Shown here: positions 9,977 through 20,927 of the stretch, in pieces
Numbering within the stretch: the stretch's first letter is position 1
Layout: each line of letters begins with the position of its first letter
DNA from: Leptotrichia wadei
GTDB lineage: Bacteria; Fusobacteriota; Fusobacteriia; Fusobacteriales; Leptotrichiaceae
Length of the DNA stretch: 64,000 nt
Direction: 5' to 3'
Assembly: GCF_007990545.2 (NCBI RefSeq)
Contig: NZ_AP019829.2
Span: 310,001 to 374,000 of the forward strand
Notes under the pieces: model-generated
Database searches by the model: none
Seen by the model: the letters and a program-made list of their open reading frames with translations, nothing else
What the model was told of the DNA's origin: nothing
Program-made: the position numbers and the translations under genes

Positions 9977-10399
9977 AACGTAAAAGGACAAGGAGAAGAA
10001 ATTTTATTAGAAAAGGAAAGCATCTTGGATGTTAAATTTCTTTCAGAATCACCTGATGATTCAAATGCAAGAGCAGCTGATTTAGGAATTATTCTTGAAA
10101 TCAAAGGAAAAATTTTGGCAGTTGCAAATGGAGATGCTGAAGATGATACAAGAAAGGTTGCTCAATGGTCATTAGTACCTGCTGAATCAAGCGACGCATA
10201 CAGAACTGTGGCATTAGAAGTAATATCTGCAGGGCAAATGGTAAGAAAAATTGATATGACAAATGCGTTTGTTGTTGATTACGAAGAATCTTATGGAGAT
10301 CAAGCAGGAACTGGAACATTCTCGTTGAAAATCAAACAGAAAAAAGAGAAAGTTAAGGAAGTTGCAATTGAAGGTGGATATGCTGCTCAGGAAGCATAA
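9977..10399 (+). pseudogene. Hcp/TssD-like tube protein, 5'-truncated
   Basis: The frame is open after a TAG at 9974 and lacks an ATG; the only in-frame start (TTG 10025) has no good ribosome site. The C-terminal half (residues about 75-125: RTVALEVISAG, KIDMTNAFVVDY, GTFSLKIKQKK) is an Hcp-like beta-barrel end and aligns with the tail of the larger Hcp-like protein at 12676-13569 (FELYFPKMYVSGF, GYFELELKQ). Hcp forms the inner tube of contractile injection systems and also chaperones small effectors. The first strands appear to have been lost at a junction just after the AAA-ATPase gene. Confidence 0.6.
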
Positions 10400-10460
10400 T
10401 GTGACACAAGGAGGTAGACAATCCCGTCTATCTCCTTTTATTTTTATAGGAGGAAAAACA

Positions 10461-11030
10461 TTGATATACATAAAAATTATTAACCTATTAATATTTTTTT
10501 CTATATTTGTTAATATAAAACCAAATATTTTTATTATTATAATATTAACAATATTTTTTTCAATAATAAATTCTATGAAAAAATCAGATTTAAAACTTTA
10601 TATTGATAAAGAATTATTAATATTTCAGATAATAACCTCATTTTTTTTGTATAGGAAAACTAATTTTTTTGAAATAGATATGAAATCTTACATGTTTTAT
10701 TTTTATAATTATGCAAAACTATTATTTTTAGGTATAAATATAGCAATGATAATTTATTTTTTTAAAAGAAAAACAAAAGATTTTTATTATTACTATTTTT
10801 ATATAATATTTTTATTTCTTTTAATATTTGAAAATAGATTTGATATATCTTTTCTTTCATTATTGGAATTTTTTATTCATATAATAGATTTGCTATATTC
10901 ACAGTACTTGTTAGATTTAATAATGTTATTTATAATAATAAAATTTTGTGTAGTAAAAAAAAGTAAGAATAGTTTATATTTATTTCTTTTATTAAATATA
11001 TATATAAAATTAAAAATATTTATTGTTTAA
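10461..11030 (+). CDS. Multi-pass membrane protein, hypothetical (candidate immunity protein)
   Basis: A 189-residue protein starting at TTG 10461, 6 bases after AGGAGG. A longer frame opens at 10362 but overlaps the previous gene. The sequence is extremely rich in Phe, Ile, Leu and Tyr, with about five to six predicted membrane segments and short basic loops. No motif is recognised. It is sandwiched between an Hcp-like fragment and a candidate effector, the position where T6SS loci often keep immunity proteins; that role is inferred only from the neighbourhood. Confidence 0.6.
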   Translation: MIYIKIINLLIFFSIFVNIKPNIFIIIILTIFFSIINSMKKSDLKLYIDKELLIFQIITSFFLYRKTNFFEIDMKSYMFYFYNYAKLLFLGINIAMIIYFFKRKTKDFYYYYFYIIFLFLLIFENRFDISFLSLLEFFIHIIDLLYSQYLLDLIMLFIIIKFCVVKKSKNSLYLFLLLNIYIKLKIFIV

Positions 11031-11043
11031 GGAGGATAATTTT

Positions 11044-11828
11044 TTGAGTAATAAGAAAGAAGAAACAAATAATTTTGTAAAGAGAAAAGGTACAAAAGAT
11101 GAAAATAATGATATAAAAATGAGTAAACTAAATATTTCATTGAAAGAAAAGGATGCAAATTTTTTAATTAAAATAATTGTTAATGAAGTGTTAAAAGTAG
11201 CATCGCCTGTATCTGTTGCGGCTAAATGTTTAAGATATTATTTGGCATATCCTTTGCGTATATCCAACCAGAAATATAAAGCTGGACAATTATTAGGATT
11301 ACCAAAAGGGAAATTATACGATATATGTAAAAAAATATATCCTGAACCAAGAGATTATTTGTCCTTAGGTTATAGTTTTTGGAAAAGAGGAGATTTAAAT
11401 ATACATATAGATATTGTAAAAAACTATTTAATTAATAATGTAAGATGGGCTCATAATAATAATAATATTCCAAAAGAGAAAATACTTTCATTTTATAGTT
11501 ATAGAGAAGTTAAAAGTTTTTTTAGAGATAAGGATAGAACAAATAAAGCTGCAGCAACAGATTTGTATTATGCAATTGGGGATGGAAATCATTTATTTGG
11601 AAAAGTTCATACTATTGATATGAAGAGAAGAAGGTTTCAAATACTATTAGTTTTATTTGACGAATATAATTGGGATAACAGTGCTACTTATTTTATGAAG
11701 ATAAAAAAAATACGAATGATCCATATTTGCTATCAGTAGAAACAAAATGGTTTAAAGAATTAGAAAGGAAACAATTAGCAAAACCTTTTATAACATTTTT
11801 CATTGATCCAATAACGGTAAGTTATTAA
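11044..11828 (+). pseudogene. Candidate injected effector, frameshifted near its C-terminus
   Basis: Translation probably starts at TTG 11044, 8 bases after AAGGAGG. The first frame runs to about residue 215; a one-base loss at 11691-11694 (TTTT where TTTTT is expected) then truncates it. In the -1 frame the protein continues through TNDPYLLSVETKWFKELER to a stop at 11828, giving about 261 residues. The C-terminal region has an AxGDGxxxFG segment followed by a hydrophobic strand and DEYNWD; a similar glycine strand plus D-x-Y-x-[FW]-D pattern occurs in several bacterial toxin domains including colicin-M-like ones, but the match is too loose to name it. No signal peptide is seen. It follows the membrane protein by 13 bases. 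Confidence 0.5.
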
Positions 11829-11863
11829 AAAATATTTAAAACGAAAGGAATTATTTTAAAGGA

Positions 11864-12639
11864 ATGTTTATAAATAAATATCCAGTTTTTAAAAAAGGAA
11901 ATGTGCTGGAAAAGGAAGATTTAGATTTATTAAGGGATAACCCGCTTGAAGTATTGAGCTTGATGTATTCTGACAAAAGTAATGGAATAATAAAAGGGTT
12001 CGACTTGATACCCAATTACAGCGAGAGAATAGTGACAATTACAAAAGGAATGGCAAAATGCAACGGGGAACTTTTTTGGATGAAGGAAGATTATATATTT
12101 GATATGCCAAAACAAGAGGAACGATATATATTAAAACTTAAATTAGTGTCAAATATAGAAGAAAGAAAATATTATGTAAGGGAAGGACGTTTTGTGCTGG
12201 AGCTTGGTGAAAATGTTAATGAAGATGAAATTGAGATAACAAGGTTTATCACAAGAGAAGGGGCTGAATTGAGGAATGATTATCAAAATTTCAGAGATTT
12301 GAGAAGAGATTTTAACTTGATGGAGATTATAAATACAAAATATTCTTCAGCACATAAATGGGGAACTTTTCATCCACATGTATTAAAACTATGGGGAAAG
12401 GAAGTTTCGAAAATCTTGATATTTTTGATATAAATTTCTATGTAACCTGTCTACAGCAGGATGTTATAGAACGAGATGTTATAACTTCATATATAAATGC
12501 AAAACTTAATTTGACAGATGAAAATTATACAAATGAACAAATGTTCAGACATTTATTGACAATATTAGATAATTTAGGAACAGAAAGAAAAAAAGTTGAG
12601 AAAAAACGAATAATACCTAGAAAAATAATAGTAGAATAA
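11864..12639 (+). pseudogene. Injection-system-associated conserved protein, frameshifted
   Basis: Two frames overlap and join at about 12393-12397 (GGGG run): the first ends in HPHVLKLWG and the -1 frame continues as KGSFENLDIFDINFYV to the stop at 12639. Joined, they encode about 258 residues. The N-terminal part has an IKGFDLIPNY...VTITKGMAKCNGELFW segment, a strand-rich pattern found in tail-fibre- or baseplate-associated proteins of phage-like particles, and the C-terminal part is helical. It lies directly upstream of an Hcp-like gene. The family is not one I can name. Confidence 0.5.
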
Positions 12640-12675
12640 AAATTTAAATAAAAGAAATAAACAGGAGGAAAAATT

Positions 12676-13569
12676 ATGAAATTTAGAGTAAGTATAGCTG
12701 GAGGAAGTAACAATACATCAAATAATCCATTTGGAGGACTTGGTAATGTTTCGGTTCCAAGTGTGGCAATGAACTTTGTATCAAATGGAGAAAATAAAAA
12801 TCCAATTTCAAATGCAATGGGAGGACTGACACAGCAAGGCGGAGTAATTCTTTCAAGTGATGAAATACTGGAAGTATCTTACAGCACAAACCCAATATAT
12901 GGTGAAACGATGAGTGCTTCTCAAAGCCAAGTGACATTAAGAATTGTAGGAAGACTACTTCCCACAGCTTCGGAAAACAATAGTCCTGAAGATGAAGGCG
13001 AAGGGATAGTTAGCGGAATAATGGGAACACTTGGTATGGGAACATTATTTAACCAATATAAAAGTGTAAAACACTTATTTGACAAAGATAACGAAGCAGG
13101 AGAAGAACTTCCAGAAGCCTCGTTAAGCAGCAACCTTTTATCATCAAGCGGAATTACTGAACCAGTCGCTAAAAAAGCAAAAGAAAGCAGTAAAAGCAAA
13201 CTTGTTTCTCAAGTTTTAGGAGTAAGCTCAACACTGCCAATGACAAATTCATTTACAAATGGCATAGGAAACAGTCTGAAAGGAATGTTCGGAGGACTTG
13301 GAAATTTTGGAGAAAGTAATTTATATGATCAAAATAAGCAGAATGTGAAAGAATTATCATTGTGGGCGATGACTTACGGAGATGAAAAATCAACTAGGGA
13401 TGTAATGGTGCAGACAGATTTAGGGGGAGGGAAGACGTTTGAACTTTATTTTCCTAAAATGTATGTTTCTGGTTTTGATCAAAGATTTAATACTAGAGCT
13501 GGAGAAGGATATTTTGAATTAGAATTAAAACAGACAGCTTTCAATGAAAGTGATATAAATTTAAATTAA
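12676..13569 (+). CDS. Hcp-like tube protein with long insertion (contractile injection system)
   Basis: A 297-residue protein with a perfect AGGAGG site before the ATG. Residues 1-100 are strand-rich (GGVILSSDEILEVSYS..., then QSQVTLRIVGRL). Residues about 100-215 are a low-complexity Gly/Ser/Asn-rich insertion. Residues 220-297 form an Hcp-like C-terminal barrel half (SLWAMTYGDEKSTRDV, KTFELYFPKMYVSGF, GEGYFELELKQ). Classical Hcp is about 160-170 residues, so this would be an extended version. The family call comes from the C-terminal pattern shared with the 9977-10399 fragment and from linkage to VgrG-like and Tae4-like genes. Its last 383 bp are duplicated at 15343-15725. Confidence 0.6.
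   Translation: MKFRVSIAGGSNNTSNNPFGGLGNVSVPSVAMNFVSNGENKNPISNAMGGLTQQGGVILSSDEILEVSYSTNPIYGETMSASQSQVTLRIVGRLLPTASENNSPEDEGEGIVSGIMGTLGMGTLFNQYKSVKHLFDKDNEAGEELPEASLSSNLLSSSGITEPVAKKAKESSKSKLVSQVLGVSSTLPMTNSFTNGIGNSLKGMFGGLGNFGESNLYDQNKQNVKELSLWAMTYGDEKSTRDVMVQTDLGGGKTFELYFPKMYVSGFDQRFNTRAGEGYFELELKQTAFNESDINLN
13187..13569 (+). repeat. 383-bp direct repeat, copy 1 (3' part of the Hcp-like gene)
   Basis: The partner is 15343-15725, at an offset of 2156 bases with no insertion or deletion. The first three quarters differ by scattered single bases only, while the last 36 codons differ strongly. This suggests an older duplication with selection or exchange at the 3' end. Confidence 0.88.
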
Positions 13570-13585
13570 AAGGAAGTTATAGCAT

Positions 13586-14275
13586 ATGAATAGAAAAGGT
13601 AAAATAACAGCAATAGAAATTAATGAAATAAAAAATGCTTTAAAGTATGGTTATATACATTATAGAGAATTAGATAGTTTTTTTAGAAATAATCTTTTAG
13701 GCTCAGATCCATTAATGATAAGGACTTATGTTGAAGAAATTACATTTAAAGTAGTAAAAACTATAGAAGATAATATAAACCCAACTAAACTTCCTGATAA
13801 TGCTACGAGAAATTATTATTATAAACTATACCAATATATTAAAAGATCAGGTACAATTTTTAGAATCATAGATGATGATGATAAATTAAGAGAAGTAAGA
13901 AACGGTCGAGAAGTTTATGAACATTTATCTTATTTATTGGCAGAAGGGAAATATAATAAAGAAGTTAGAAAGAGTAATAAAATAACCAAAATTATTCAAA
14001 GCATTATAGAAAAAGGTTTACAAGAAATGCAAAAAAAAGTTTCTTCATTTGTTTTTGGGCTTTTAGAAATAAAAGAAGTAGAAAACCAAAGAGATTTATT
14101 AATAATTTATGTATTATCTACTTTATCAGTTGATCAAAAAGAGATAGAAAGAATAATAAAAGAACTAGATTCAGAATTAAGAAAAGGAAAAGATGCTAAT
14201 AACAATAATAAATATTTATTTCAAAGACGGATTCTTATAAAAATATTAGATATATATAAAAATTTTTTGAATTAA
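13586..14275 (+). CDS. Hypothetical helical protein (candidate effector cargo)
   Basis: A 229-residue, mostly helical soluble protein without signal peptide or recognised motif. It begins 16 bases after the Hcp-like gene with its own AGGAAG site, so the two are probably translated together. It is followed immediately by two membrane-anchored paralogues. The order tube - cytosolic protein - exported small proteins resembles tube-linked effector/immunity cassettes, so a cargo role is possible. This is purely contextual. Confidence 0.55.
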   Translation: MNRKGKITAIEINEIKNALKYGYIHYRELDSFFRNNLLGSDPLMIRTYVEEITFKVVKTIEDNINPTKLPDNATRNYYYKLYQYIKRSGTIFRIIDDDDKLREVRNGREVYEHLSYLLAEGKYNKEVRKSNKITKIIQSIIEKGLQEMQKKVSSFVFGLLEIKEVENQRDLLIIYVLSTLSVDQKEIERIIKELDSELRKGKDANNNNKYLFQRRILIKILDIYKNFLN

Positions 14276-14288
14276 GAGGAAATATAAT

Positions 14289-14723
14289 ATGAAAAAATGT
14301 ATAACTATAGTATTAATTTTTTTCTCATTAATTATTGTATTTATAATTAGAGAAAAACAAAATAATATAAAATGTAAAATAAATTCATTAGAAGAAGAAA
14401 AAGAATATTACTTTAATTCGTATCAAGAACTTAAAAAGAAAAATATAAAGTTATACAAGTTAGACGATAACCAAAATTTGGTGGAAGTAAAAAGTAGCTG
14501 GGATATCATAGTTTCTTTAGGAATGATTCTAAGTTATGGTGAAAGTAAACGAAATTTTTTTGATTCTAAAAAAGTTGTTTTAAGTAAAATGTTGGGGTTA
14601 GAAAAAAATGAAAAAAATATTTTAATTTATATTCCAAAAGAAAAAGAAAAAGATATACTTTCTAAAGCTTCGAAATATCAAAAAATGAATGCATGTAGTC
14701 TAATGGAAATATTAAAAAACTAA
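14289..14723 (+). CDS. Membrane-anchored hypothetical protein, tandem paralogue 1 (candidate immunity)
   Basis: 144 residues: an N-terminal hydrophobic anchor at about 5-22 (ITIVLIFFSLIIVFII), then a soluble domain predicted to lie on the outer face of the inner membrane. It shares layout and motifs with the next gene (YYFNSYQELKKKNIKLYKLDD here; EYYQKNYKIFKERNIKFYIDD there; both end in C-x-L-[MV]-E-[IV]-L-K). Tandem divergent copies of a periplasm-facing protein next to an Hcp-like gene are typical of immunity genes. No known family is recognised. Confidence 0.6.
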   Translation: MKKCITIVLIFFSLIIVFIIREKQNNIKCKINSLEEEKEYYFNSYQELKKKNIKLYKLDDNQNLVEVKSSWDIIVSLGMILSYGESKRNFFDSKKVVLSKMLGLEKNEKNILIYIPKEKEKDILSKASKYQKMNACSLMEILKN

Positions 14724-14738
14724 AAGAGGAAATCAACT

Positions 14739-15215
14739 ATGAATAAATTTTTTAAATTAACATTATTGTTTGTTTCCATTATTGTGGTTATCTTACTTTA
14801 TAAAAATCATTCAAAAAGAGTAAAAGTAAATGTGTCCGATTGCCCAAATAATCGCTATATGGCAAACAGAAAAGAATACTACCAAAAAAATTATAAAATT
14901 TTTAAGGAAAGGAACATAAAATTTTATATAGATGATGAAAATGGAAAAATGCGAGAAATTACTAATCAAGATGAGTTTTTTACTTCATTAAGAGAAGCCA
15001 AAGATTATGCTTATGAAATAGTTGGGAAAAAATGGTTTTATACAAAAAGAAAGTTATTTGGGATAGCATTTGGAATTGATAAGGAAGCAAAAATAAAATA
15101 TATTTTAGTACCAGAAGAAGAAAAGAAAAATATATTAAAAAATATAGACAAATATCCTGAAAAGAATATAGAAAATAGATGTGTATTAGTAGAAGTGTTA
15201 AAAGGTAATTATTAA
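14739..15215 (+). CDS. Membrane-anchored hypothetical protein, tandem paralogue 2 (candidate immunity)
   Basis: 158 residues with an N-terminal anchor at about 6-22 (KLTLLFVSIIVVILLY) and a soluble domain related to the preceding gene. It carries extra Cys residues (DCPNNRY, NRCVLVEVL) that could form a disulfide outside the cytoplasm. It starts 15 bases after its paralogue, so the pair probably arose by tandem duplication and forms one transcription unit with the Hcp-like gene. Confidence 0.6.
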   Translation: MNKFFKLTLLFVSIIVVILLYKNHSKRVKVNVSDCPNNRYMANRKEYYQKNYKIFKERNIKFYIDDENGKMREITNQDEFFTSLREAKDYAYEIVGKKWFYTKRKLFGIAFGIDKEAKIKYILVPEEEKKNILKNIDKYPEKNIENRCVLVEVLKGNY

Positions 15216-15294
15216 GAATATTAGAACTAAAATTAACTTTGGATTTTAAATTAAAAAGTAAAAATGAAATATTAAAACTGAAAAGGGAGAATAT

Positions 15295-15375
15295 ATGACA
15301 GATTATTATAAAATACTAGGTGTTTCAGAAGATGCTGATGCAGCAGTAAAAGCAAACTTGTTTCTCAAGTATTAG
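15295..15375 (+). pseudogene. J-domain protein, N-terminal stub fused out of frame to Hcp-like sequence
   Basis: The first 16 codons ([16 protein letters not shown]) match the start of the intact J-domain gene at 17546 base for base except for isolated changes (offset 2251). At 15343 the sequence switches to the 3' part of the Hcp-like gene, in a different frame, and stops after 26 codons. The switch occurs at a shared GCA trinucleotide. A ribosome site (AAAGGGAG) is still present. It is a recombination scar, not a functional gene. Confidence 0.85.
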
Positions 15376-15725
15376 GAGTAAGCTCAACATTGCCAATGAC
15401 AAATTCGTTTACAAATGGAATAGGAAATAGCCTAAAAGGAATGTTTGGAGGACTTGGAAATTTCGGAGAAAGCAATTTATATGATCAAAATAAGCAGAAT
15501 GTGAAAGAGCTATCATTGTGGGCAATGACTTACGGAGATGAAAAATCAACTAGAGATGTAATGGTGCAGACAGATTTGGGAGGAGGAAAGACGTTTGAGC
15601 TTTATTTTCCTAAAATGTATGTGGATAGTTTTAATCAAAGTTTTAGTGTTAGAGGTGGAGAAGGGTATTTTGTTTTAAATTTAAAACAAACAGGATTTAA
15701 TGAAGATAATAATACTTTAAAATAA
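15343..15725 (+). pseudogene. Hcp-like C-terminal fragment (repeat copy 2)
   Basis: This is copy 2 of the 383-bp repeat. It encodes the last 127 residues of the Hcp-like protein and lacks the N-terminal barrel half. An in-frame TTG at 15390 could start a 111-residue product, but no ribosome site is visible. The end (MYVDSFNQSFSVRGGEGYFVLNLKQ) differs from copy 1 at about half the positions over the last 35 residues, so it may carry an alternative C-terminal variant stored as a silent cassette. Confidence 0.75.
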
Positions 15726-15752
15726 AAATTATAAAAGTAATGGAGATAAGTG

Positions 15753-16898
15753 ATGAAAATTAGAAAAATATTAATAAAAAATATAATTATAATATTATCT
15801 ATTTTAATTTTTTTTATTAATTGTACTAAAAAAATAAATAATAAGAATTTAGAAAAAAGAAATAGTACAGTAGATTTAAAAGAAAAGTATTTAAATTATG
15901 GAATAGATTTAGAAAATGTAAAAGATAATTTAGTGATATTAAAAAAAATAAATAATAATTATTTTATAAATTTTAAAGATCCTATTTTAGTAACTTGTAA
16001 ATATAATAATAATAATATTGAAAAAATTTTTTTTGAAAATGTTAATTTAAACGAAATTTATAATATTGATTGTATTTCAAATTATGATAAGAATAGAGAA
16101 TATTTAAAATGGTTTATTAATTTAAAAAGTATAGAAAATTATGAATCCAAAGATTTAAAAAATTTACCTCCTAAACTAAAAAAACAAATAGAAACAATAT
16201 CAATTGATGAGTTCTATAGAGGAGATACCTTTGATATTAATGAAATTATTGAGTTTAAAAATTTAAAAAATATTGCAGTGGCAGATAAAAAATTAAAAAA
16301 CTTTAATAAAATGGAAAATTTTTTAGAAATAGAAGAAATTAATTTAGATTCAGTAGAAATAGTAGATAGTGATTTAAGTATTTTTGATAATAAGTTAAAT
16401 AATTTTACTAAATTGATGAAGTTTAAAATTTTTGATGTGAAAGAATTTAAAAACATAAACATATTAAATAATTCCCCTAATTTAAAAATTTTAAACATTG
16501 CTGGAGTTGAAAACATCAAAGATATAGATATTTTAAAAAATTTTAAAAATTTAGAAGAAGTTGATATTTCTAATAATAAAATAAGTGATATTTCTCCATT
16601 AAAAAATTCTAAAAATATTAGAATACTATCAATAAGTAATAATTTAGTTAAGGATATTGAGGTAATAAAAAATTTTAAAAATTTAAAAGAAATTTATATT
16701 CCTCACAATAAAATAAAAGATTTAACTCCCTTGAAATCTTTAGAATTTTTAGAATACATTCTTTTAGATGATAAAATAAGTATAACAGAAATTAAAAAAA
16801 ATTTACCTAAAAGATTATATAAAAATGCAAAAATATACACAGATGACGCTGCCTATTTAGGATTAATAGAAGTGTCTTATGAAAAAGGAGAAAATTAA
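15753..16898 (+). CDS. Leucine-rich-repeat lipoprotein
   Basis: A 381-residue protein starting at ATG 15753 (GTG 15750 is possible). The signal peptide ends in a lipobox-like LIFFINC, Cys at about residue 25. From about residue 170 to 350 there are internalin-type leucine-rich repeats of about 22 residues, for example LKNLEEVDISNNKISDISPL and LKEIYIPHNKIKDLTPL. It is likely an envelope-anchored binding protein. It ends 2 bases before the Tae4-like amidase gene, so the two are co-transcribed; it could be the amidase's immunity partner or an unrelated surface protein. Codon use is extremely AT-rich. Confidence 0.75.
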   Translation: MKIRKILIKNIIIILSILIFFINCTKKINNKNLEKRNSTVDLKEKYLNYGIDLENVKDNLVILKKINNNYFINFKDPILVTCKYNNNNIEKIFFENVNLNEIYNIDCISNYDKNREYLKWFINLKSIENYESKDLKNLPPKLKKQIETISIDEFYRGDTFDINEIIEFKNLKNIAVADKKLKNFNKMENFLEIEEINLDSVEIVDSDLSIFDNKLNNFTKLMKFKIFDVKEFKNINILNNSPNLKILNIAGVENIKDIDILKNFKNLEEVDISNNKISDISPLKNSKNIRILSISNNLVKDIEVIKNFKNLKEIYIPHNKIKDLTPLKSLEFLEYILLDDKISITEIKKNLPKRLYKNAKIYTDDAAYLGLIEVSYEKGEN

Positions 16899-17545: not shown

Positions 17546-17980
17546 ATGACAGATTATTATAAAAGACTAGGTGTTTCAGAAGATGCTGATGCAAAAGAGA
17601 TAAATGCAAAATACAGAAAATTAGCCATGAAATATCATCCAGACAGAAATCCTGATGATAAGAAGGCTGAGGAAATGTTTAAGACAATCAGCGAGGCGTA
17701 TGAGATACTTGGTGATGAGAATAAAAGAAAAGAATACGATGAGAAAAGGAAGAATAAGGGAAATACTGGAAGTCAAAGATTTGGTGAGAAGAAATCAAGC
17801 AGGGCAGAGCAGAACAGTGAATCAGCTAAAAGGGGGGCTGAGGCATTTTTCCGTAATTTTTCAGCAAATCCAAATGATATAAAGAATATGTTTGAAAGTG
17901 CTAAGGATGGTTTAAAGGAAGGGGTGAAAAATGAAGAAATTTATTTTGATAATCTTTTTTTGTTTGTTAATAGGATGTAG
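17546..17980 (+). CDS. Small J-domain (DnaJ-like) protein of the injection island
   Basis: 144 residues starting at ATG 17546 ([10 protein letters not shown]), 8 bases after TGGAG; an upstream in-frame ATG at 17522 precedes that site. Residues 1-68 are a J domain with the HPD motif ([10 protein letters not shown]), the part that stimulates Hsp70 ATPase. The rest is a polar, Ser/Arg/Glu-rich tail without zinc fingers or the DnaJ C-terminal domain, so it is not the housekeeping co-chaperone (that is at 21031-22218). It overlaps the lipoprotein start by 50 bases. Its own 5' end is also present as a stub at 15295, which ties it to the mobile cassettes. Confidence 0.85.
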
Positions 17981-19157
17981 AAATCAAGGAAATGATGTGG
18001 TAATAAAAGATATTGATGATGTTTATTTTTATCTGGAAAATAAGAAAAATCCTGAAAAAGCTCAATTAATGGCAAGAATTGTTTTTGAACTGGAAAGGGA
18101 AAACTATGAAGAAGCAGAAAAGTATTTTTTAAAACTGGCAAAATACGATAAAACCGCTTATGTTTCGCTTGCAAATATGTATTATGAACATATTGATAAA
18201 AAAGAAGGGGAAAAGAGGTATGAAATAGCTTTTGAAAAAGGAAATAAAAGGGCAGGTACAATTTTGGGGATGATTGCTGAAGATAATAATGATTATAAAA
18301 AGGCGGAAGAATGGTACAAAAAATCGTTGGATAAAGAGAATATGTTAGGATATAAATTTTTTGCTAAATTTTTATATAAAACAAATAGGAAAAATGAGGC
18401 TGAGAAATATTTCATAGAAGCTGGAAATCTCAAAGATGCGGATTCGATGTTATACTTAATAAAAATATATTATATGAAAAAAGATACTGAAAAATTGAAA
18501 TACTGGCAAGACAAAATATTAAATACAAAGGAAATTTTTAAATTTGACGATGAAACGAATGATTTATTGAAATATAGTTTGTCAAAAGATAAGATAGATA
18601 AGGAGTTTTTTGAATTGTATATAAAAGGGGAAGAAAGTGTTTTAAAGAAAGACTATGAAGAAGCAGAAAAATATCTTGTACAAATGGAAAAGCTAAAAAA
18701 AGAAGGAATTTTATATACAGCTGATTTTTATTATCGTTTTAAGGATGAAAAAGAAAAGGGAATAGAAAAGTATAAAAGAGCATATGAAAATGGCATAAAG
18801 GAAGCAGCAGCTTTTATGGGAATTATTGAGCATAGAAACAGGAATATTGATGAAGCAAAGAAATGGTATAAAATAGCGTCAGAAGCAGGAAATACTAATT
18901 CACAAATATATTTGGCACAAATTCTGAAAGAAGAAGGCGATAAAACCGAAGCTCTAAATTTGTATTTAAAAGCGGCTGAACTAAAAGATTATAGAGCGAT
19001 AAATTATTTATTAAAATATTACTACAGAGAGAAAAATTTGAAAGAAATAAAAAAATGGGTAGATGTAGTTAAAAAATCAAATGGACTAAAAAATTATAGT
19101 GAAGTTGACAGTAGAAGAATAAAAGAATATGAAAAATTTTTAAATAAAAATAATTAA
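17931..19157 (+). CDS. TPR/Sel1-like repeat lipoprotein upstream of VgrG
   Basis: 408 residues. The signal peptide has lipobox LLIGC with Cys at about 16. The mature part is made of about nine helical repeats of 34-38 residues with Sel1/TPR signatures ([55 protein letters not shown]). It is likely a periplasm-facing protein-binding scaffold. In T6SS loci of other bacteria, Sel1-repeat lipoproteins next to VgrG act as immunity proteins to phospholipase effectors, so an immunity or adaptor role is plausible here. It starts inside the 3' end of the J-domain gene and lies 75 bases upstream of vgrG. Confidence 0.78.
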
Positions 19158-19232
19158 AATTTATAGTTAGAAAAGTTATAATTGCAAATCAATTTTAATT
19201 TAAAATAAAAAATATAAAAGGTAGGTTAAAAA

Positions 19233-20927
19233 ATGGAGAATAATTTAAATAATCAGAAGCCAGTGGAATTTTTTTCTGCTGAAAGAATAAAGATAGAAAT
19301 AGATGGACAGCAGATACTTTGGAGAGATATGAATCTTGAAATAGATTCAAAGATAGGGGAACATACAATTGGGAAAATAAAATATACGGCATCACCGAAC
19401 CAGTTAAGTTTATACGATGCCCTGATAGATAAAAAAGGCGACAAGACAATAGTAGTTACAGGAAGAAGCAACATATCGGATGAAGCGGGAAATGCTACAG
19501 ATAAAATATTCTTAAATGGAGTTATAAGCAAACTTAGGATAAAGGAAACAAAGGCAGGAGCATTGGCAGTTGAATTATTATGCAGTTCAAAGAGCATACT
19601 TCTTGACAGAATACCAAGATACCGTTCATTTCAGGATCCAACACTTACGTATACAGATATAGCACAGGAAGTGAATAAAAATTATAATGATGGGGAAACA
19701 TTGGTAAATATAGGGGAAGATATGCAGGCAGTCCCAAGAATGACAATCCAGTATAATGAAACAGACTGGGAATACTTAAAGAGAATAGCATCGTATACAG
19801 GACAGCCACTAATGGCAAATTCAAATAAAGTTCTGGTAGGATTTTTCAAGAATATGCCAGCACAGACACCAAACTTGACATATTCATATTTTGGAAAGGA
19901 AACAGAGGAGGAAAGAACATATTACAGGGTAGAGGGGACAGAAGTGTATTCAGTATCAACCCCAATAAAATTAAAAATTAGAAACAGAGTATCAGGCGAA
20001 GAAGTGGAAAATGACTACTATGTAATAGAAAGCAGAATATACAATGAAGGAAACACCTTAAAGTGCGAATACAAGCTAGGAAAGCAGACAGATTATTTTG
20101 TAGATCCAATACCGCACGAAAAGATAAGAGGAGCAGTGATAGAAGCGAGAACAGTACATATTGCAAGAACAGATGAGAGCAAGAGTGAGCATGGAAGAAC
20201 TGATGGAAGTTCGAATAATCTTGAAGGTAGAACTATGGGAATAAAGCCTGTAAATATATATGTTGCTGAGGAGCAGGAAAAAAATAATAACAGAAGTCAG
20301 GAAGTGAAAGAAAGCGATATTGCAGTTATGACAGTTGACTTGACAGAAGGGCTAAGAAAACTTGGAGGAGCAGTACAAAGTGAAGCGGATAAATATGCTG
20401 GAAAAAGTTATTTCCCATATGTAACTCCATACAGTCAGACAAATACAGGATTTACGCCTGCACCAGAGCCAAATGACAGGATAGCACTTTATTTTCCAAG
20501 TGAAAACGAAACGCATGCGTTGGTAATGGGAGCGGTAAATAATAACGGTAATGGAAGGTTTACTAATCCTGATAAAAGGAACTTTACATTAGGACCAAGT
20601 CAGGCAGCTAGAGGAGGAACACCTGCGAATGAAGGGAAACCGATGTACAACTTTACTTTGGATAATGAGAAGTTTATTGTTAATGTAGGAAATTTAATTA
20701 GTTTGACTTCAAATGGTACGGCACAGATGACAGCAAAAAGTAATATAGATTTAACTTCAACTGATGCTATAGCAACATTGAGAGGTAAAAGTTGTGTAAA
20801 AGCAATAGCGATTGAAAATGCAGAACTTATGGCAAAAAATGTCAATGTTGGACTTGGAGAAGGTGGAAAAGCGAATCAAACTAAGATAAAAGAAATAAAA
20901 ACTGCACTCAAAACTCAAATGAGATAA
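19233..20927 (+). CDS. vgrG: VgrG-like spike protein (contractile injection system)
   Basis: 564 residues. Residues about 1-280 resemble the gp27/phage late-control D hub, including IQYNETDWEYLKRIASYTG at about 168-186, the most conserved VgrG signature. Around 390-450 is a gp5-like OB-fold domain (YFPYVTPYSQ, DRIALYFPSENETHALVMGAV). The C-terminus (510-564) has beta-helix-like SNIDLTSTDAI repeats and then stops: no effector extension and no obvious PAAR domain. VgrG trimers cap the Hcp tube and carry effectors across membranes. It looks complete, unlike most of the island, and ends in a terminator. Confidence 0.87.
   Translation: MENNLNNQKPVEFFSAERIKIEIDGQQILWRDMNLEIDSKIGEHTIGKIKYTASPNQLSLYDALIDKKGDKTIVVTGRSNISDEAGNATDKIFLNGVISKLRIKETKAGALAVELLCSSKSILLDRIPRYRSFQDPTLTYTDIAQEVNKNYNDGETLVNIGEDMQAVPRMTIQYNETDWEYLKRIASYTGQPLMANSNKVLVGFFKNMPAQTPNLTYSYFGKETEEERTYYRVEGTEVYSVSTPIKLKIRNRVSGEEVENDYYVIESRIYNEGNTLKCEYKLGKQTDYFVDPIPHEKIRGAVIEARTVHIARTDESKSEHGRTDGSSNNLEGRTMGIKPVNIYVAEEQEKNNNRSQEVKESDIAVMTVDLTEGLRKLGGAVQSEADKYAGKSYFPYVTPYSQTNTGFTPAPEPNDRIALYFPSENETHALVMGAVNNNGNGRFTNPDKRNFTLGPSQAARGGTPANEGKPMYNFTLDNEKFIVNVGNLISLTSNGTAQMTAKSNIDLTSTDAIATLRGKSCVKAIAIENAELMAKNVNVGLGEGGKANQTKIKEIKTALKTQMR

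What the first reader, a model, noticed from the sequence alone, without database searches (positions are those of the whole stretch)
15295..15725. Chimeric scar: J-domain gene start fused to an Hcp-like gene end at a 3-base microhomology
Bases 15295-15342 equal the start of the J-domain gene (offset +2251) and 15343-15725 equal the end of the Hcp-like gene (offset -2156), joined at GCA. This is direct evidence that cassettes were shuffled and that a tube gene lay next to a J-domain gene in an ancestor. The switch leaves a promoterless Hcp tail with a variant C-terminus.
Basis: seen in the sequence. Interest (0 to 1): 0.65.

Follow-up and report, generated by a model that had tools for sequence, protein, structure and literature searches.

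The report
Shared seam between two toxin cassettes
A short hybrid of two gene fragments, found at the same joint in four places in three Leptotrichia species, is the seam left when a second toxin/immunity cassette was spliced into a toxin-injection gene cluster; it is a genetic scar rather than a working gene, and it records how these oral bacteria stack and swap weapons.

Summary
The chimera is real: window 15295-15342 matches the J-domain gene start at 47/48 bases, and 15343-15641 matches the 3' part of the Hcp-like gene (HcpL) at 275/299. The last 84 bases match only 64/84. The "3-base microhomology" is not there; the parents overlap by one base.

The same joint, base for base, occurs in three more loci (two in G002, one in G004), so it arose once and is older than these copies. 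Each time it lies between two cassettes: HcpL - slot 1 - [J stub|HcpL tail] - slot 2 - J gene. Slot 1 differs in all four loci; slot 2 holds one of two cassette types. L. buccalis (G001) has the single-slot form HcpL - cassette - J without the chimera.

Best reading: an incoming HcpL-cassette-J segment paired with the resident HcpL at one end and was joined illegitimately at the other. The older cassette was pushed into slot 2, where the effector is absent or frameshifted in three of four loci. This matches a published model for Vibrio cholerae immunity arrays.

The tail has no in-frame start and one copy carries a nonsense codon, so a product is unlikely but not excluded. It is a new variant of a known process, in a divergent T6SS-like system.

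The parts
12676..13569 (+). hcpL: intact Hcp-like (tube-like) gene, 297 aa; source family of the chimeric tail
   Evidence: related to the cluster's Hcp only through an intermediate homologue
13486..13569 (+). hypervariable C-terminal end of hcpL (about 27 codons), exchanged together with the cassette
   Evidence: pN 0.26 here versus 0.03 in the preceding 100 codons; identical in G012 together with the cassette
13586..14723 (+). slot-1 cassette: ORF229 (candidate effector) and ORF144 (candidate membrane-anchored immunity protein)
   Evidence: 99.8% identical to G012. Functions inferred from position and hydrophobic N-terminus only
14739..15290 (+). ORF158 and its downstream leader, homologous to a chromosomal locus of other Leptotrichia; 30% identical to ORF144
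15295..15342 (+). J-domain gene start (48 nt); opens a 26-codon ORF (15295-15375) with its own Shine-Dalgarno-like GGGAG
15342..15343 (.). seam between J start and HcpL tail, identical joint in four loci
15343..15725 (+). HcpL tail, out of frame with the stub, no start codon at its 5' end
15750..16898 (+). slot 2: leucine-rich-repeat lipoprotein, candidate immunity protein
   Evidence: LRR_4 1.4e-23; 97% nucleotide identity in L052
16901..17380 (+). slot 2: Tae4-type amidase effector gene, frameshifted here relative to the intact L052 copy
   Evidence: (PF14113 2.2e-10 here, 1.8e-16 in L052)
17546..17980 (+). J-domain gene, source family of the stub; its 3' end diverges from relatives after 17902
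   Evidence: (DnaJ 4.4e-27)
19233..20927 (+). VgrG-like spike gene downstream of the array
   Evidence: Phage_GPD 2.7e-6, just under the curated cut-off; VgrG models weak

Best explanation
The chimera is the seam of a two-slot effector/immunity array in a divergent T6SS-like (contractile injection) cluster. Inferred first step: incoming DNA carrying HcpL - new cassette - start of the J gene recombined with the resident HcpL at its 5' side by ordinary homology, while its other end, 48 bases into the J gene, was joined without real homology to the middle of the resident HcpL. One such event leaves a functional HcpL followed by the new cassette (slot 1), then J-stub|HcpL-tail, then the old cassette (slot 2) and the intact J gene. 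Shown: the seam is the same in four loci, which implies one event that then spread. Shown: the cassettes differ between loci in both slots, so they were swapped later. Inferred: the repeated HcpL tail and J start served as homology arms for those swaps. Inferred: the chimera itself makes no useful protein; what slot 2 keeps is mainly an immunity-type gene, as protection against relatives that still use the displaced effector.
For: Same joint in G000, G002 (two loci) and G004. Single-slot parental form HcpL-ORF291-ORF183-J in G001, whose contig length of 2,465,610 bp equals the L. buccalis type strain genome; HcpL - ORF291-like - ORF191 (resembling ORF183 by inspection) - VgrG in Sebaldella-like G027. 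Clusters without HcpL have ORF260 or Hcp directly followed by J, so HcpL plus cassettes entered there. The chimeric tails of L051 and L053 end in the same C-terminus (GFNEDGINLK) and are followed by the same gene ORF291 as the intact HcpL of L054, as expected if the tail plus slot 2 is the displaced old unit. The slot-2 effector is absent in L051 and L053 and frameshifted in the window; only distant ORF183 homologues (36-39%) are found elsewhere in G002 and G004. Sharp cassette/flank identity breaks. The L053 stub still carries a J-like leader upstream of its ATG. The model is published for V. cholerae (PMC5361080).
Against: No locus shows the moment of insertion, and a within-genome tandem duplication followed by cassette replacement gives the same product. 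L052 has an intact Tae4 in slot 2, so slot 2 is not always immunity only. Effector and immunity roles are inferred except Tae4 (family match). Chimeric tails show the same low dN/dS as intact HcpL (0.12 versus 0.13), which must be explained by sequence exchange with intact genes; a permutation test on site order gave no signal for that (p=0.52), although half of the informative site pairs are incompatible with one tree.
Confidence: 0.62

Rival explanations
1. Tandem duplication within one genome: a slipped or unequal exchange duplicated the segment from mid-HcpL through the cassette to 48 bases into J, producing exactly one J-start|HcpL-tail joint; homologous recombination later replaced one or both cassettes.
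For: The structure (full HcpL, cassette, seam, cassette, full J) is what a tandem duplication with these breakpoints predicts. One-base overlap at the joint is compatible.
Against: None of the four loci has the same cassette in both slots; a second replacement step is needed everywhere.
Confidence: 0.25
2. The chimera is a functional element: the 26-codon stub and/or the C-terminal half of HcpL is translated, for example as a modified tube subunit, an adaptor, or a leader that couples translation to the slot-2 immunity gene.
For: All four copies keep a ribosome-binding-like sequence before the stub ATG and a 26-codon stub ORF; three of four keep the tail frame open; dN/dS of tails about 0.12.
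Against: Tail frame has no start codon at its 5' end; an internal start would be TTG 15390 or ATG 15396, the latter 17 nt from the nearest AGGAG. The L052 tail has a nonsense codon (TAA) and L051 has G>R and other private changes. No frameshift heptamer seen at the seam. The same dN/dS is expected if tails are recently copied from intact genes.
Confidence: 0.1
3. Assembly or sequencing artefact.
For: None found.
Against: Four independent copies in three genomes, with locus-specific substitutions.
Confidence: 0.01

Closest known systems
T6SS immunity-gene arrays of Vibrio cholerae (Kirchberger et al. 2017, PMC5361080)
   Same: Cassette inserted behind a conserved secretion gene; older immunity-type gene pushed downstream and kept while its effector is lost; insertion end without homology, as in homology-facilitated illegitimate recombination; also an auxiliary hcp/vgrG cluster.
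   Different: Here the anchor and remnant are the 3' end of a tube-like gene and the 5' end of a J-domain gene, not the 3' end of the displaced effector; one identical seam is shared by four loci in three species; the host is a fusobacterium with a divergent system.
Orphan cdiA-CT/cdiI and rhs-CT/rhsI modules (PMC3150448; PMC3967940)
   Same: A 3' gene fragment without translation start, sharing a few hundred bases at over 90% identity with the full gene upstream (522 bp at 95% in the Salmonella case), followed by an immunity gene; such repeats allow recombination that loads the stored module onto the main gene.
   Different: The fragment does not itself encode the toxin; effector and immunity are separate genes behind it. 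Recombination between the repeats is not shown here.

Membership tests
T6SS effector-displacement / orphan-immunity array | different cassettes at one site behind a conserved secretion gene | tested here: met
   slot 1 differs in all four chimeric loci and in L054
T6SS effector-displacement / orphan-immunity array | displaced immunity gene kept without its effector | tested here: inconclusive
   ORF291 alone in slot 2 of L051/L053 while L054 has ORF291+ORF183; Tae4 frameshifted in the window but intact in L052; immunity function not tested
T6SS effector-displacement / orphan-immunity array | remnant of the 3' end of the displaced effector in front of the kept immunity gene | tested here: not met
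   the remnant is the HcpL 3' end, with a J-gene start before it, not an effector end
CDI/Rhs orphan module | fragment without translation start, sharing a conserved block with the full gene | tested here: met
   275/299 identity to HcpL, stop at the seam, no start codon at the 5' end of the tail frame
CDI/Rhs orphan module | fragment itself encodes a variable toxin domain | tested here: not met
   the tail encodes the HcpL C-terminus; cassette genes are separate ORFs
Hcp / TssD (PF17642) | Pfam family score above curated cut-off | tested here: not met
   HcpL: no hit; Hcp gene: 15.5-16.1 bits against cut-off 25.8. Link to HcpL only via G020:C59:2278 (2e-8 from Hcp, 3.8e-16 from HcpL)
Type VI secretion system | VgrG/PAAR-type spike, FHA protein, T6SS effector | tested here: met
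   Phage_GPD 30.5 bits in L056 (cut-off 30.1), 27.2 in the window; FHA 1.3e-7; DUF4280 9e-17 with Hint and nuclease; Tae4 1.8e-16
Type VI secretion system | TssB/TssC sheath recognisable by sequence | tested here: not met
   721-aa conserved candidate has no Pfam or NCBIfam match and only chance-level PDB hits, even as a profile
Type VI secretion system | TssJLM membrane complex and TssK | not tested
   not searched

The most novel reading that the evidence does not exclude
The repeated HcpL 3' end and J-gene start act as a standing exchange site: a dedicated cassette dock, maintained across species, through which an undescribed fusobacterial contractile injection system loads and stores effector/immunity cassettes, with the HcpL C-terminus exchanged together with its cognate effector.
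Probability: 0.2. Interest if true: 0.6.

Novelty: new variant of a known kind. Interest (0 to 1): 0.42.

Why it matters
It extends the displaced-effector model, described in Vibrio, to a fusobacterium of the human mouth, and gives it an unusually clear molecular marker: one seam, identical in four loci, that lets the order of events be read. It also shows that the exchanged unit includes the last codons of a tube-like protein, which makes it testable whether a tube's C-terminus is matched to the effector encoded behind it.

Tried and rejected
Three-base microhomology at the seam: rejected, one-base overlap. Programmed frameshift joining stub and tail: no slippery heptamer seen; not supported. 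Chimeric tails as a separate lineage: rejected, they do not form a clade and share no fixed difference with each other against intact genes in the conserved part. Permutation test for exchange among tails: no signal (p=0.52). Structure prediction of HcpL from a single sequence failed (pLDDT 31), so no fold comparison was made. Searches of plasmids, viral contigs and genome contigs found no relevant homologue; the one pattern hit, L091 in a Comamonadaceae MAG, was not examined further and is taken as a chance match of a short pattern. PDB searches for HcpL and the sheath candidate gave only chance-level hits. Papers on T6SS in Leptotrichia: none on the topic among the titles and abstracts listed.

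Full report
Observation. The stub 15295-15342 agrees with the J-domain gene start 17546-17593 at 47 of 48 bases. The tail agrees with the intact Hcp-like gene (here HcpL, 12676-13569) at 275/299 bases up to 15641 and at 64/84 beyond. At the seam the two parents overlap by one base, not three. In the window the J frame runs into the tail out of frame and ends after 26 codons ([26 protein letters not shown]). The HcpL frame meets a stop at the seam and has no start until TTG 15390 / ATG 15396.

Recurrence. A DNA search of 13 Leptotrichia species genomes found the whole chimera in four loci: the window genome G000, two loci of G002 (L051, L052) and one of G004 (L053), the other three at 90-94% identity. 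The joint is at the same base in all, with a 26-codon stub ORF and a ribosome-binding-like sequence before it. It is therefore most simply a single old event that was inherited or exchanged, not a private accident of this genome. The genus is supported by G001, whose contig of 2,465,610 bp has the published length of the L. buccalis type strain genome (PMC3035221).

Anatomy. In every case the chimera separates two cassettes: HcpL - slot 1 - chimera - slot 2 - J gene. Slot 1: ORF229/144/158 (window), ORF299/236 (L052), ORF243/150/171 (L051), ORF192/272 (L053). Slot 2: LRR lipoprotein plus Tae4 amidase (window, L052), or ORF291 alone (L051, L053). In L. buccalis (L054) there is one slot, HcpL - ORF291 - ORF183 - J, and no chimera. 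In the Sebaldella-like G027 (L132) HcpL is followed by an ORF291-like gene (37% identity), ORF191 (which resembles ORF183 by inspection; not scored) and a VgrG. In clusters that lack HcpL, the J gene directly follows Hcp (L133) or ORF260 (L134). HcpL and its cassettes therefore probably entered between ORF260 and J, and the chimera marks the boundary between a first and a second unit.

Exchange. Identity along the locus breaks at cassette borders. Window 13488-14765 (HcpL C-terminus, ORF229, ORF144, start of ORF158) is 99.8% identical to G012, while the adjoining 11863-13158 is 95.9% (Fisher p=3e-13). The last 27 codons of HcpL are hypervariable among intact genes (pN 0.26) against 0.03 in the 100 codons before them, so the left border of the exchanged unit lies inside HcpL. 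The chimeric tails of L051 and L053 end like the intact HcpL of L054 and are followed by the same gene. The stub of L053 also retains a J-like leader upstream of its ATG, while the other three stubs are preceded by unrelated cassette ends. In the window that cassette end (14704-15290, ORF158 and leader) is homologous, at 86-87%, to a chromosomal locus present in seven other species, where (in the two read in that direction, G004 and G001) the next gene begins ATGTCAGAATAT instead of the stub's ATGACAGATTAT. This is a second seam directly in front of the first.

Does the chimera make anything? The tails have the same dN/dS (0.12) as intact HcpL (0.13), which at first sight suggests selection on a product. 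But the L052 tail has a nonsense codon, the tails have no start codon of their own at the 5' end, they do not form a clade, and no site separates all chimeric from all intact copies. Re-copying from intact genes during cassette exchange would explain the pattern. I could not prove it: the permutation test was negative.

Mechanism. The parsimonious account is an insertion in which one end of incoming DNA used homology in HcpL and the other end, within the J start, was joined without homology. Kirchberger et al. (PMC5361080) proposed this for V. cholerae as homology-facilitated illegitimate recombination, leaving old immunity genes behind the new module. Loss of the effector in slot 2 (ORF183 absent in L051 and L053; Tae4 frameshifted in the window, intact in L052) fits that model. 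A tandem duplication followed by replacement cannot be excluded. The repeats also resemble orphan CDI/Rhs modules, where evidence for recombination between main gene and orphan has been reported (PMC3967940; PMC3150448). Shown here: one shared seam, two slots, differing contents, a single-slot form without the chimera. Inferred: direction and mode of the first event, effector/immunity roles other than the Tae4 family match, and the use of the repeats as recombination arms.

What system it is. Neighbouring genes include a VgrG-like spike (Phage_GPD), an FHA protein, DUF4280-Hint-nuclease and Tae4 effectors, and a conserved 721-aa protein next to Hcp. That protein and HcpL have no Pfam or NCBIfam match and only chance-level PDB hits, and Hcp matches TssD only below the curated cut-off. 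'Hcp-like' rests on an intermediate homologue in G020. The system is best called T6SS-like and divergent. The window's own copy is decaying: Hcp start lost, ORF260 and Tae4 frameshifted, J gene truncated, FHA gene missing.

Noticed in passing
window 14704-15290: ORF158 plus leader is 86-87% identical to a chromosomal locus in seven other Leptotrichia (upstream of an ankyrin-type gene in those read further); homology stops about where the J stub begins, a second seam.
   Followed up: yes
window 10457-11862: A further cassette ('slot 0': membrane protein and ORF238, whose family recurs in slot 1 of L053) between Hcp and ORF260, present in the window and L052 and cleanly absent in L051, L053, L054 and L055.
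   Followed up: partly
window 17903-19160: The J gene diverges from its relatives after 17902 and the FHA gene is missing; in its place lies a TPR lipoprotein gene 88-91% identical to chromosomal copies elsewhere, one of them in the same genome (G000:C1:1443016).
   Followed up: partly
window 10025-12640: Hcp lacks its start (stop codon in the frame), and ORF260 is split by a frameshift: the auxiliary cluster of this genome is decaying.
   Followed up: partly
L055 (G012), HcpL: HcpL has a 336-base in-frame internal deletion with a 7-base overlap at the joint, and transposase-like ORFs replace the J and VgrG part.
   Followed up: partly
L072 (G002:C1:736000-755500): The cluster with the chimera lies next to genes that look like a conjugative element (large helicase/methylase protein, topoisomerase, NlpC) and a type III restriction-like pair, suggesting it is mobile cargo.
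   Followed up: no
L051:3374-5539; hits in 24 of 33 genomes of the family: A 721-aa protein, next to Hcp where both were read together and 50-100% identical across the family (fragments only in G008), has no match in Pfam or NCBIfam and none beyond chance in PDB; candidate sheath of an undescribed contractile system.
   Followed up: partly
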